From a virus, in IMG/VR virus record IMGVR_UViG_3300010160_000117, positions 1-36,464 of that record: DNA of 36,464 nt; one strand, given 5' to 3'. The notes beneath the pieces were generated by a model. That model was not told where the DNA came from. It was given only the letters and a program-made list of their open reading frames with translations, and searched no databases. Positions 1 to 36,464 of the stretch are shown in pieces. Made by a program: the position numbers and the translations under genes. Position 1 is the stretch's first letter. The number at the start of each line of letters is the position of its first letter.

Positions 1-274
1 ATTTTGTATGATCGTAGCTTTTCTTATTAAAAAGACCTTCAATTAAAAGACCTTTTGATATGCAGTTATTTATTATTCGTCTTATGCTCTGTCGATTCCA
101 ATAAGGAAATAGCTCAGAAAATGCTCTCTGGCTGTTGTAGGTCCAATAATGGCCTTCTTTATAGTTATGTCTATTTGCTATGTTTTGAATCGTCCAGAAA
201 TGTATATTATTTAAAAATATTGCCTCATCCACACCATACTTTTTCGCTATCTCTGTATTAAAGCTATGTAACAT
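1..274 (-). CDS. Replisome-organiser-like replication protein, N-terminal part (continues at the window's other end)
   Basis: This is the first 87 codons of a protein that runs off the left edge and continues at 36451 down to 35937. ATG is at 274, and an AGGG lies about 9 bases upstream. The protein begins MLHSFNTEIAKKYGVDEAIF, followed by WTYNSQRAFSELFPYWNRQS and IRRIINNCISKGLLIEG. This is the winged-helix pattern found at the start of many phage replication initiators or replisome organisers (a DnaD/DnaT-like role, recruiting DnaB helicase to the origin). Reading across the 13-base end overlap gives KKSYDHTKWYALTS with no frame change. The full product would be about 262 aa. The helicase gene follows directly. 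The fold assignment is from pattern memory; the junction is seen directly. Confidence 0.85.
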   Translation of the reverse strand, partial: MLHSFNTEIAKKYGVDEAIFLNNIHFWTIQNIANRHNYKEGHYWTYNSQRAFSELFPYWNRQSIRRIINNCISKGLLIEGLFNKKSYDHTK

Positions 275-308
275 GATAAAATCCCTATTGATAAATCCTG
301 TTGTACCG

Positions 309-332
309 AGCCCTCCGAACTGAGGGCTTTTT
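309..332 (+). terminator. Rho-independent terminator
   Basis: A 7-bp GC-rich stem AGCCCTC/GAGGGCT (309-315 with 322-328) encloses a 6-base loop and is followed by TTTTATTT on the plus strand. It has the form of an intrinsic terminator for rightward transcription. No plus-strand gene precedes it: upstream lies the antisense side of the replication genes. It may stop antisense transcription coming from the csrA operon side. Read leftward, it lies in the leader of the replication gene without a U-tract. Confidence 0.6.
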
Positions 333-428
333 ATTTGAAACCATTCATCCTAGCACGCTCAAATGCTCTAAAAGCAAGAGCAGGAAAGGCTCTTAACGAT
401 ATCTTTACAAAGTCTTGATGATATTTTT

Positions 429-451
429 CGCACATGTTTGGTGCATGTGCG
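429..451. repeat. Perfect 8-bp inverted repeat, hairpin-forming
   Basis: CGCACATG (429-436) and CATGTGCG (444-451) form a perfect stem with a 7-base loop TTTGGTG. There is no T-tract on either strand, so it is not an ordinary terminator. It could be an operator, a primosome-assembly or origin hairpin, or an RNA stem. Confidence 0.6.
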
Positions 452-516
452 TATGACAAAGCTAATAAGAAATTTTGCATGTGACAAATCCTTCTGTTGT
501 TCGCAAGAATTAAAGG

Positions 517-544
517 TTGACAGACAAATTAAATGTGCTACAAT
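517..544 (+). promoter_or_regulatory. Strong sigma70 promoter with extended -10
   Basis: TTGACA at 517-522, a 16-base spacer and TACAAT at 539-544, preceded by TG at 536-537 (extended -10). It matches the consensus closely. Transcription would start near 551 and run rightward into 551-990, where no plausible ORF exists. The product is therefore predicted to be a non-coding RNA. Confidence 0.7.
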
Positions 545-640
545 TTTACCCATATTCGCCGACTTCTATTCGGTTAATGTATCCAGGGCCTACGGCCACG
601 ACTAGCCTGGTGCTGATACACCTGGTTAGTCGATCATACT

Positions 641-708
641 AATGCAATACTTAATAACAATCAATCACTTAGTGAAATAAAAAAAACACTAACAATTGTA
701 AATTATTC
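641..708. other. AT-rich stretch, possible DNA-unwinding element
   Basis: About 70 bases very poor in G and C, including an 8-A run and CACTTAGTG (667-675). It sits between two structured segments close to the replication gene. It could be the melting region of an origin, or simply an unstructured linker of the candidate RNA. Confidence 0.3.
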
Positions 709-784
709 GTAAAGATTTACGGCCCCGGCAGCGTCTTGTACATATGATCATCCCGGATGACCCTCTTGGGGCCACCATGTTGCC
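709..784 (+). repeat. Tandem structured repeat, copy A
   Basis: It begins GTAAAGATTTACGGCC and ends GGGGCCACCATGTTGCC. Outer stem GGCCCC (721-726) pairs with GGGGCC (768-773). Inside, TCATCC (748-753) and GGATGA (755-760) form an inverted repeat. Copy B follows at a period of 87 to 90 bases with the same flanks and a different but still pairing stem. Confidence 0.6.
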
Positions 785-795
785 ACATGCACATT

Positions 796-874
796 GTAAA
801 GATTTATGGCCTCTAGGCGGTCTTTCGGATGTGAGATCCCCGGGGGACCATCATCTAGAGGCCACCATATTGCC
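796..874 (+). repeat. Tandem structured repeat, copy B
   Basis: It begins GTAAAGATTTATGGCC and ends GAGGCCACCATATTGCC. Outer stem GGCCTCTAG (808-816) pairs perfectly with CTAGAGGCC (855-863). GGTC (819-822) can pair with GACC (846-849), and GGAT (827-830) with ATCC (836-839). Against copy A, the fifth base pair of the outer stem changes from C-G to T-A on both sides, a compensatory change that suggests selection on structure. The end of this copy also supplies the -35 region of the tRNA-like gene. Confidence 0.6.
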
Positions 875-896
875 GACATCAGCAAAATGGTATAAT
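870..896 (+). promoter_or_regulatory. Promoter of the tRNA-like gene
   Basis: TATAAT at 891-896 is preceded by TG at 888-889 (extended -10). A TTGCCG lies at 870-875 with a short 15-base spacer. The expected start, about 7 bases after the -10, coincides with G903, the first base of the acceptor stem. The gene would then be transcribed with little or no 5' leader. Confidence 0.55.
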
Positions 897-902
897 AACA
901 AC

Positions 903-991
903 GACCCCGTAGCTCAGTCTGGTAGAGCCGTTTAGCTCCTAGAGCGCCGCTTTTTATCGGTAGGTCGTTGGTTCGAATCCAACCGGGGTCA
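903..991 (+). tRNA. tRNA-like gene with aberrant anticodon region (possibly degenerate, or an attachment-site relic)
   Basis: The acceptor stem is perfect (GACCCCG 903-909 with CGGGGTC 984-990, discriminator A991). The T arm is perfect (GTTGG, TTCGAAT, CCAAC at 967-983), and a good D arm is present (912-915/925-928). The middle is abnormal: about 17 extra bases (929-945) include a second GAGC. The helix around CTTTTTAT is GCCG/CGGT with an 8-base loop. A single added G between 957 and 958 would restore a normal lysine-type TTT anticodon arm; alternatively CCT at 938-940 is the anticodon and the TTT helix is a long variable arm. CCA is not encoded. The 3' end overlaps the stop codon of the minus-strand ORF that ends at 989. 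Confidence 0.6.
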
Positions 992-34387: not shown

Positions 34388-34597
34388 TTGTTAATACTAA
34401 CCAGGAATCCATCTGAGCGAATAATTATTGACGACGAAATAGAAATTGAAATCCTTGAAGTCAAAGGAAGACAAGTCAAATTCGGCATCACAGCCCCTTT
34501 GGATGTTACCGTCCATCGGGGCGAGCTTTACAAAAAACTCAAGGAGTTGGCCATGGAAACAGGGTCAACCGTCATGGATATGCGAACGCCCCGTTAA
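34388..34597 (+). CDS. csrA: CsrA/RsmA-family translational regulator (phage-encoded)
   Basis: A 69-residue protein from TTG 34388. It aligns along its length with CsrA: MLILTRNPSERIIIDDEIEI, then ILEVKGRQVKFGITAPLDVT and VHRGELYKKLKEL. The key RNA-binding residues are present at usual positions: L4, T5 and R6 in the first strand, and R44 in VHRG. The C-terminal tail is slightly longer. CsrA dimers bind GGA motifs in mRNA leaders and control carbon flow, motility and virulence in gammaproteobacteria. It ends the right early operon, so it may reset host or phage translation. Confidence 0.92.
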   Translation: MLILTRNPSERIIIDDEIEIEILEVKGRQVKFGITAPLDVTVHRGELYKKLKELAMETGSTVMDMRTPR

Positions 34598-34602
34598 TGG
34601 GC

Positions 34603-35940
34603 TTAACCTCGATGCTCCCCGTATTCACGGAAATTCTTCATGCCCTTCAACGGAACAACTCCAGCGCCAGAGTAATAACTGAACGCCCGTTGTTGGTCAG
34701 TTTCCCGGAACACCCCACTTTGAAAGTCAAAAACAGCTTTCCAAAGAGAGCCAAATCTATTCTTTCGACACTTCACGATGAAATGATTCTCAGTGCCACT
34801 TACCTCGTCATCAGCATACGGTCGATGAACCCCAAGCCAAACCGTGGATGACCTTTCGCTCCCACTTGAATCAGCAGCATCAGACGTAACTGGACACTTA
34901 TCCTGACGGTTAGCATACTCCCGATTGACTTGAGAAAGTGCAATCACAATGCAATCGAGCTCAATAGCCAAAGCCGCCAATTGCTCAGAAATATTAGCCT
35001 GACGAAGCACATGAGACTCAAGTTTGTTATTCGTGTTCTGAACTAGACCCAGATAATCCACTACAACGACGCCCAAGGGCCTTTTTAGATGCGTTATGCG
35101 CGACATGGTCCGTATGTAGTCTATTGACGTCATCGTCTTGCATTCGATGGTCATAGGGATTTCTAGAGCTAATCCAACAGCAACTGTCTTGTCAGCATCA
35201 GTAAACAAATCGACATCCTTACTCATAAGGCTTGAAAGCTGTTTTCGAAAGATGTCCATGCTCGACATTTCAAGACTAAAGAACAATGTGTGTGGATTAG
35301 CATGATTCGCTGCGATGCCTTGAGCTAATCTTACGGCAAACGATGTTTTTCCTGTTCCTGAGCGCCCGGCAATTGTAATCAAGGAAGCGTTAGCGAAGCC
35401 GCCACCATTGAGGTGATCAAGCACTGAAATGCCCGAAGACACCATTTCTTTCGCAGTGCTTGGCGTAGATAGAAACAAATCGCCCAACTCTTCTGCTGTA
35501 TTCATGGTTTTAGATTGTTGCTCCGGGCAAGAAGCTATTTTTATTGCGTCCTCAATAAGTCGCGAACATGCTACAGAATGAACAGGCTCATTGCTGAATA
35601 CATGAGACATCATTTGCAATGAGGTCCTCATCATTTTGTGTTGTTTGATCATCTTTAAGCTTTCAACATCGCGGGAAAGAGAATAAACCGATGGCCAATC
35701 AGCGGAAACTTTTGCAAAATAGTCGTAAAGCTTTATGTCTAAGAGATTGAATAGCGTGAATGCATCAATAGGATGATTGGCGGAATGCTGTTTTATGATT
35801 AATTCAAATATCGCGCGAGCTTCGTTGCTCACAAAACAATCCGGCGTTAGCTCTAATAATGCCTCAAGGACTGAAACCTCTGGGTTTCCATCATGCTTGA
35901 TCAACGAGGTTATTACTTTTGATTCCAGTTCAAAACTCAT
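34603..35940 (-). CDS. DnaB-like replicative helicase
   Basis: A 445-residue protein. N-terminal DnaB domain (SFELESKVITSLIKHDGNPE), linker, then RecA-type core: Walker A ITIAGRSGTGKTSFAVR, FFSLEMSSMDIFRKQLSS, Walker B GVVVVDYLGLVQN, and IVIALSQVNREYANRQDKCP with VTSDAADSSGSERSSTVWLG. It is the phage's hexameric helicase. It overlaps the replisome organiser by ATGA, so they are coupled. It converges with csrA with only a 5-base gap. Confidence 0.92.
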   Translation of the reverse strand: MSFELESKVITSLIKHDGNPEVSVLEALLELTPDCFVSNEARAIFELIIKQHSANHPIDAFTLFNLLDIKLYDYFAKVSADWPSVYSLSRDVESLKMIKQHKMMRTSLQMMSHVFSNEPVHSVACSRLIEDAIKIASCPEQQSKTMNTAEELGDLFLSTPSTAKEMVSSGISVLDHLNGGGFANASLITIAGRSGTGKTSFAVRLAQGIAANHANPHTLFFSLEMSSMDIFRKQLSSLMSKDVDLFTDADKTVAVGLALEIPMTIECKTMTSIDYIRTMSRITHLKRPLGVVVVDYLGLVQNTNNKLESHVLRQANISEQLAALAIELDCIVIALSQVNREYANRQDKCPVTSDAADSSGSERSSTVWLGVHRPYADDEVSGTENHFIVKCRKNRFGSLWKAVFDFQSGVFRETDQQRAFSYYSGAGVVPLKGMKNFREYGEHRG

Positions 35941-36464
35941 GACTTGTCCTCGTGCTCACCGGAAATTACTTTTTTAATGTTAATCGGCCTCATGAGGACG
36001 TAGAAGTCGTTCTGTCTTGTTTTTCCGTTCACAACATAAGGGTCAATAAGCCATCGGCAACGACTTGAAATGAAACTCAGGTAGTCAAAAAGGGTTACAT
36101 CTTCATTCTCAAATAAATTTAAAGCTATATTTAACCTGGTTATTACTTTTGGTGACGCTATTTTTGGGCATGGAACTTCATTGTGTTTAGCCCAAGTCTT
36201 GAATATTTCAAAATTATCGTTTTCTGCGGGCCTGTCTCTCTTGTTTACTATCTGTTGTTTACTATCTGGTATAGGTTGGTTGGTTTCAACCACATGATTG
36301 GTTGGATCCAACCAATGGTTTTCGGTATTTTCCGAAATAGATTGGTTAAAACCAACCAATGAGCATTCATGCGGTATACAGAGGTTTTCTGTGTTGTCTG
36401 AAGGCAATGTGGTTCCAAATAAATCTAAACAAATGCTTGTTAAGGCATACCATTTTGTATGATC
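35937..36464 (-). CDS. Replisome-organiser-like replication protein, C-terminal part (starts at the window's other end)
   Basis: This completes the protein begun at 1-274. In frame from 36464: DHTKWYALTSICLDLFGTTL, then a low-complexity Asn/Gln/Thr/Pro-rich linker (about residues 110-165, with paired NQSI/NQPI repeats), and a C-terminal helical domain (LNIALNLFENEDVTLFDYLS). The first frame-internal start (TTG 36407) is not the true start. The C-terminal domain probably contacts the helicase encoded immediately downstream. Confidence 0.85.
   Translation of the reverse strand, partial: DHTKWYALTSICLDLFGTTLPSDNTENLCIPHECSLVGFNQSISENTENHWLDPTNHVVETNQPIPDSKQQIVNKRDRPAENDNFEIFKTWAKHNEVPCPKIASPKVITRLNIALNLFENEDVTLFDYLSFISSRCRWLIDPYVVNGKTRQNDFYVLMRPINIKKVISGEHEDKS
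36452..36464. repeat. 13-base terminal direct repeat (map closure)
   Basis: The last 13 bases equal bases 1-13 (ATTTTGTATGATC). Joining them gives one continuous reading frame, so the repeat is an assembly overlap or permuted end, not a biological repeat with flanking sequence. Confidence 0.9.

What the first reader, a model, noticed from the sequence alone, without database searches (positions are those of the whole stretch)
551..887. Undescribed structured non-coding block behind a consensus promoter
A TTGACA-16-TGcTACAAT promoter at 517-544 fires into about 340 bases with no ORF but dense pairing: a 14-position hairpin at 599-632, then two 87-90-base tandem units with closed stems. Its position beside the replication gene and a tRNA-like gene suggests a regulatory RNA, an origin-linked RNA or a packaging signal. 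It matches no class I recognise.
Basis: partly seen in the sequence, partly recalled or inferred. Interest (0 to 1): 0.8.

Follow-up and report, generated by a model that had tools for sequence, protein, structure and literature searches.

The report
Phage RNA antisense to replication leader
Next to this phage's replication gene lies a short, strongly conserved folded RNA, new to the RNA databases, whose position on the opposite DNA strand suggests that it throttles phage DNA replication the way antisense RNAs control plasmid copy number.

Summary
The first 90 bases of the block are a real RNA gene; the rest is not part of it. Window 550-636 (+) folds into three hairpins: H1 558-574, H2 587-597, H3 599-632. 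A covariance model built from 17 other phage sequences, window left out, finds it as the only hit in 36 kb (68.6 bits, E 8e-17). In those 17, 19 of 23 base pairs show compensatory changes; no shuffle matches this. Rfam 15 has no such family.

In all 18 phages a promoter-like sequence lies 4-7 nt before the RNA's 5' end. The RNA points away from the replication gene, about 100-320 bp upstream of its start, often with a ~50-codon ORF between. In 13 of 18 (0.4 expected) a promoter-like sequence for the replication gene faces it at its 3' edge, so the RNA would be antisense to the rep mRNA leader. H3 loops are enriched for YUNR, the motif of antisense recognition loops.

Best reading: a plasmid-style antisense replication-control RNA. 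This is inferred; no expression data exist. The tandem units (708-886) were found only in this phage; unit 1 is no more structured than shuffled sequence. The adjoining tRNA is tRNA-Lys-like with an insertion.

The parts
517..544 (+). Promoter of the RNA gene: TTGACA, 16 bp, TGcTACAAT
   Evidence: 11 of 12 consensus matches; a promoter-like sequence with its -10 ending 4-7 nt before the RNA 5' end in all 18 family members
550..636 (+). Conserved structured RNA (three hairpins); 5' end about 550, 3' end not determined
   Evidence: Model R3, built without the window: 68.6 bits, E 8.3e-17, only hit; covariation
558..574 (+). Hairpin H1 (558-562 with 570-574)
   Evidence: Covarying helix 1
587..597 (+). 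Hairpin H2 (GGCC-UAC-GGCC), short conserved loop
   Evidence: Covarying helix 2, 95.6-100% of cells paired
599..632 (+). Hairpin H3, 14 positions, loop CUGAUA with a YUNR motif
   Evidence: All 14 pairs compensatory in the 17 relatives; loop motif enriched
636..664 (-). Predicted facing promoter of the replication gene, TTGATT-17-TAGTAT; predicted start about 629 (an alternative TTGTTA-16-TATGAT at 660-633 overlaps it)
   Evidence: Same motif at the same place in 13 of 18 members, 0.43 expected; alternative
331..480 (-). Small ORF of 49 codons between the RNA and the replication gene, possible leader peptide
   Evidence: Homologs in G012 (48%) and G040 (41%) at the same place; similar-sized ORFs in several members
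2..274 (-). N-terminal part of the replication-initiation protein; continues at the right end of the record (35937-36451)
   Evidence: phrog_11233 E 1.6e-26; ORF intact across the 13-base overlap

Best explanation
Window 550-636 (+) is a small RNA gene of a new phage RNA family. It is transcribed from its own promoter, away from the replication gene, and is complementary to about the first 80 bases of the replication-gene mRNA, whose predicted promoter faces it (636-664, minus). By pairing with that leader, probably starting at the H3 loop, it most likely limits translation of the small ORF and the replication protein, or ends or slows their transcription, and so sets the pace of phage DNA replication in the manner of plasmid copy-number RNAs. 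Shown here: conserved structure, strand preference, promoter-like sequence at fixed spacing, synteny, facing promoter-like sequence. Inferred: that both transcripts are made, that they pair, and that replication falls as a result.
For: Covariation: 19 of 23 pairs with changes on both sides, 88.7% of cells paired, 0 of 500 shuffles; window found by a model without it; five members found by a model that lacked them; own promoter-like sequence in 18 of 18; always antisense and upstream of a replication gene; facing promoter-like sequence in 13 of 18, 0.43 expected; YUNR in 11 of 18 H3 loops, 3.8 in shuffles, p 0.0002, a motif typical of loop-loop antisense recognition (PMC4485353); G-U 31 against A-C 12, favouring the RNA strand; the arrangement of antisense RNA, hairpins, leader ORF and rep matches ColE2-like and REx-C plasmid modules (PMC5304414).
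Against: No expression data. No terminator was found after H3, so the RNA's length is unknown. The facing-promoter test was defined after the motif was seen, and 5 of 18 members lack it. The short H2 loop is conserved in sequence (UAC/AAC in most), which simple antisense pairing does not require and which suggests a bound protein or another contact. In the window the small ORF ends 56 bases before the replication start, so translational coupling is not evident.
Confidence: 0.6

Rival explanations
1. Transcription interference: the act of transcription from the facing promoter, rather than the RNA itself, regulates the replication region, as proposed for lambda pO against pR.
For: The two predicted promoters face each other about 90 bp apart; lambda pO lowers pR transcription and affects replication (PMC3985674).
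Against: Interference alone needs no folded RNA, yet 19 of 23 pairs covary.
Confidence: 0.15
2. A trans-acting phage RNA that binds a host or phage protein, the place beside the replication gene being incidental; the conserved short H2 loop would be the binding site.
For: H2 loop conservation; full link with a phage csrA gene in contigs of 25 kb or more.
Against: The RNA keeps one fixed place antisense to non-homologous replication genes. The window RNA has no GGA, so CsrA is an unlikely partner (sequence).
Confidence: 0.12
3. A nascent-RNA antiterminator of the HK022 put type, or an RNA primer or transcriptional activator of the replication origin.
For: H2 and H3 are one base apart (alignment), as I recall for put RNAs; promoter beside the replication gene.
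Against: No protein gene on the same strand follows until 2184; no put sequence was available to compare; the origin was not located.
Confidence: 0.07
4. The functional structure is in the replication mRNA (minus strand), a leader element that regulates its translation, and the plus-strand promoter is spurious.
For: The same helices exist in complement; the facing promoter motif is conserved in 13 of 18.
Against: G-U 31 against A-C 12; the outer H1 pair is G-U in 12 of 17 relatives and in the window; folding z -4.27 on plus, -1.89 on minus; plus-strand promoter-like sequence in 18 of 18 at fixed spacing.
Confidence: 0.05

Closest known systems
Plasmid antisense replication-control RNAs (ColE2 antisense RNA, CopA of R1, RNAI of IncI/K, Pseudomonas REx-C modules)
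   Same: Short RNA with its own promoter, encoded opposite the rep leader, hairpins with a recognition loop, small ORF between it and rep in many members, control module kept with non-homologous rep genes (PMC5304414, PMC10724649, PMC4485353)
   Different: In phages; three-hairpin architecture not matched in Rfam 15; no terminator seen; function, pairing and coupling untested
Lambda pO / OOP RNA
   Same: Phage RNA transcribed away from the replication initiator gene, convergent with the transcript that carries it (PMC3985674, PMC5869508)
   Different: The promoter is not at the start codon but about 240 bp upstream of it; no terminator after the hairpins; no cII-like gene is overlapped
Sister RNA family R1, found here in related phages (not in Rfam)
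   Same: Same genomic place, divergent from rep, own promoter-like sequence, hairpins
   Different: Different sequence and structure; the window has no R1 match; its promoter overlaps the rep start codon and its 5' end the Shine-Dalgarno complement

Membership tests
Plasmid-type antisense replication-control RNA | RNA encoded opposite to and overlapping the rep mRNA leader | tested here: met
   Always antisense, upstream of the replication gene; overlap rests on the predicted facing promoter
Plasmid-type antisense replication-control RNA | Own promoter | tested here: met
   By consensus only, 18 of 18
Plasmid-type antisense replication-control RNA | Stem-loop with recognition loop (YUNR) | tested here: met
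   11 of 18 H3 loops, p 0.0002; the window has CUGA
Plasmid-type antisense replication-control RNA | Leader ORF coupled to rep (some systems only) | tested here: inconclusive
   ORF present with homologs; coupling not shown, gap of 56 bases to rep in the window
Plasmid-type antisense replication-control RNA | Controls copy number or replication, shows incompatibility | not testable with these tools
   Needs bench work
Lambda OOP RNA | Promoter at the start of the initiator gene | tested here: not met
   Promoter 517-544, rep start 274, with an ORF between
Lambda OOP RNA | Ends at an intrinsic terminator (tO) | tested here: not met
   None found after H3
Lambda OOP RNA | Antisense to the end of cII | tested here: inconclusive
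   No gene of known family overlaps 550-636, but the RNA's 3' end is unknown
Any Rfam 15 family | Score at or above the gathering score | tested here: not met
   Only the tRNA at 903-991 reaches it; 500-1010 at E up to 10 gave no convincing match to 550-636
tRNA (for units 708-886) | tRNA model match | tested here: not met
   No tRNA match at E up to 10 in 708-886, although both stems are followed by ACCA
CsrA-binding sponge RNA (CsrB type) | Repeated GGA motifs in loops | tested here: not met
   No GGA in 550-636 (sequence)
HK022 put antiterminator | Acts in cis at the start of an early operon on the same strand | tested here: inconclusive
   Two hairpins one base apart, but no same-strand protein gene until 2184; no put sequence was available to compare

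The most novel reading that the evidence does not exclude
A whole lineage of small environmental podophages carries a portable, plasmid-like replication-control module (antisense RNA, often with a leader ORF) that is kept while the replication proteins are swapped, together with a phage CsrA; the phages may persist as copy-controlled plasmids rather than integrate (no integrase was seen).
Probability: 0.25. Interest if true: 0.8.

Novelty: new variant of a known kind. Interest (0 to 1): 0.62.

Why it matters
Antisense control of replication initiators is textbook biology for plasmids; in phages the nearest case is lambda's pO/OOP, whose role in replication has long been argued over. An RNA family supported by strong covariation, at the replication gene of many uncultured phages, gives a defined and testable element: does a phage meter its own DNA replication by antisense RNA, and why? 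It also adds an RNA family missing from Rfam 15, with a model and 18 members.

Tried and rejected
1. Tandem units as mini-tRNAs: both have a GGCC stem followed by ACCA, but there is no tRNA-model match at E up to 10, and the ACCA copies are not independent. 2. Exact-word searches for the units and for the H2 word GGCCNACGGCCACGACT: chance-level hits apart from the window and one relative. 3. The window as a member of sister family R1: no match. 4. CsrA sponge: no GGA in the window RNA. 5. Immunity RNA of the P4/P1 kind with targets elsewhere: only scattered 11-mers, no longer complementary stretches. 6. Operator palindrome CGTAAAGATTTACG at 708: one perfect copy, near matches at chance level. 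7. Packaging signal: wrong place. 8. Named phages: no DNA match for one member RNA. 9. A first, unrestricted promoter scan of the rep side gave scores near shuffles; only the fixed-position test was informative.

Full report
What the window is. The window is a virus record of 36,464 bases. Its ends overlap by 13 bases, and joining them leaves a 262-aa replication protein intact, so the map is circular and complete at 36,451 bp. It has a P22-like portal, terminase and head genes on the minus strand, a DnaB-type helicase, an O-like replication initiator and a plus-strand recombination operon (Sak4, SSB, Cas4-type exonuclease). No integrase or partition gene was seen among the ORFs scanned with PHROGs.

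The observation. The promoter at 517-544 and the hairpin at 599-632 are as described. The block as a whole folds better than shuffles (z -4.36), but the signal is uneven: 551-640 has z -4.27 on the plus strand, unit 1 -0.13, unit 2 -2.88. So the block was split into A (about 550-636) and B (708-886).

Finding relatives. The tail gene and the terminase brought in some 80 related contigs. The nearest long one, L146 (terminase 74% identical), has at the syntenic place the word GGCCNACGGCCACGACT, an 11-bp hairpin after it and a promoter-like sequence before it. Genomes sharing the window's small HTH gene were then read upstream of their replication genes. Six more carried the same architecture (a seventh, G042, was too weak to keep): promoter, CATAT, H1, linker, H2 (GGGC-UAC-GCCC type), one or two bases, long H3. 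Contigs related by the 600-aa primase-helicase gave further members by descriptor and by model. In all there are 18 distinct sequences including the window.

The structure is selected. On 13 sequences with the window, 18 of 23 pairs show changes on both sides and 92.6% of cells pair, against 0 of 500 shuffles and 27-40% for slid versions. Without the window, 17 sequences give 19 of 23 and 88.7%. A model from those 17 finds the window at 550-636 with 68.6 bits and E 8e-17, its only hit. In 0.72 Mb of other loci the best score was 18.8 bits.

Strand and promoter. Wobble pairs read as G-U on the RNA strand 31 times and as A-C 12 times. A promoter-like -35/-10 with the -10 ending 4-7 nt before the RNA's first base was found in all 18 (this is the best-scoring site in a narrow stretch, so single cases are weak, but the shared spacing is not).

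Place. In all 18 the RNA is antisense to the replication gene and begins about 100-320 bp upstream of its start, most often 190-270. Many have an ORF of 47-57 codons between; the window's (331-480) has homologs in G012 and G040. The replication gene itself varies: O-like initiator plus DnaB in the window, a different Rep in L146, a 600-aa primase-helicase in most. On the other side, a facing promoter-like sequence (TTG...-17-.A...T) ends its -10 at the H3 edge in 13 of 18, with 0.43 expected. This test was defined after the motif was seen, so the figure flatters it, although each single-sequence chance was below 5%. A less restricted scan was not informative. If the promoter is real, the rep mRNA starts inside the complement of H3 and its leader is antisense to nearly the whole RNA.

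Loop motif. YUNR occurs in 11 of 18 H3 loops on the RNA strand (3.8 in shuffles, p 0.0002). The motif is described as ubiquitous where antisense pairing starts loop to loop (PMC4485353).

Mechanism. Together these features describe a cis-antisense RNA on a replication-gene leader, as in ColE2, R1 and IncI/K plasmids (PMC5304414; PMC10724649). PMC5304414 also describes an exchangeable control module of antisense RNA, hairpins and leader ORF found with non-homologous rep genes, which resembles what these phages show. Lambda's pO/OOP is the nearest phage case: convergent with pR and affecting replication (PMC3985674; PMC5869508); but two OOP features were tested and not met here (place of the promoter, terminator). 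Expression, pairing and effect are inferred.

CsrA. The window (34391-34546, +) and L146 carry a csrA gene. All 13 contigs of 25 kb or more that carry this RNA have csrA, while of the remaining long records tested only G004 has it. The window RNA lacks GGA, so a sponge role is unlikely; shared ancestry may explain the link.

The rest of the block. B is a tandem duplication found only in this phage; its function remains open. The tRNA gene at 903-991 aligns with a tRNA-Lys of a mycobacteriophage except for an insertion of about 15-17 nt and changes in the anticodon arm.

Verdict. It is a new RNA family, most likely of a known kind (antisense replication control), in an unusual setting.

Noticed in passing
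L195:2635-2694, L200:1500-1560, L202:1327-1393, L204:1489-1547, L208:1501-1568 (-), L209:1539-1605 and others: A second conserved RNA family (model R1), absent from Rfam 15 in the loci scanned, sits divergent from rep in about 15 sister phages and about 15 further contigs. Its extended -10 overlaps the rep start codon and its 5' end is complementary to the rep Shine-Dalgarno, as with lambda pO; it carries conserved GGAU motifs.
   Followed up: partly
window 34391-34546 (+): The phage encodes a CsrA homolog (71 bits); csrA is present in every long contig that carries the RNA family and nearly absent elsewhere.
   Followed up: partly
window 903-991 (+): A tRNA-Lys-like gene with an insertion of about 15-17 nt between the D arm and the anticodon arm and an altered anticodon loop (ARAGORN reads a four-base anticodon). 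Broken, or possibly a decoy or cleavage-resistant tRNA against a tRNA-Lys-cutting defence.
   Followed up: partly
window 708-794 and 795-886: Tandem duplicated units, about 90 bp, with shared flanks and diverged cores whose outer stem is kept (GGCC...GGCC followed by ACCA); found only in this phage. The first begins with a perfect palindrome CGTAAAGATTTACG.
   Followed up: partly
window 1-13 and 36452-36464: A 13-base end overlap with an ORF intact across it: the record, classed without end repeats, is a complete circular map.
   Followed up: yes
window 308-329 (+): The only terminator-like hairpin in 250-2300, on the plus strand just upstream of the rep start codon; with the TAAAAT at the rep start it could mark a second, OOP-like short antisense RNA.
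   Followed up: no
L144:1500-1900: A relative (G039) has two tRNA-Phe genes, one of them weak, with unexplained stem-loops between them ending in ACC.
   Followed up: no
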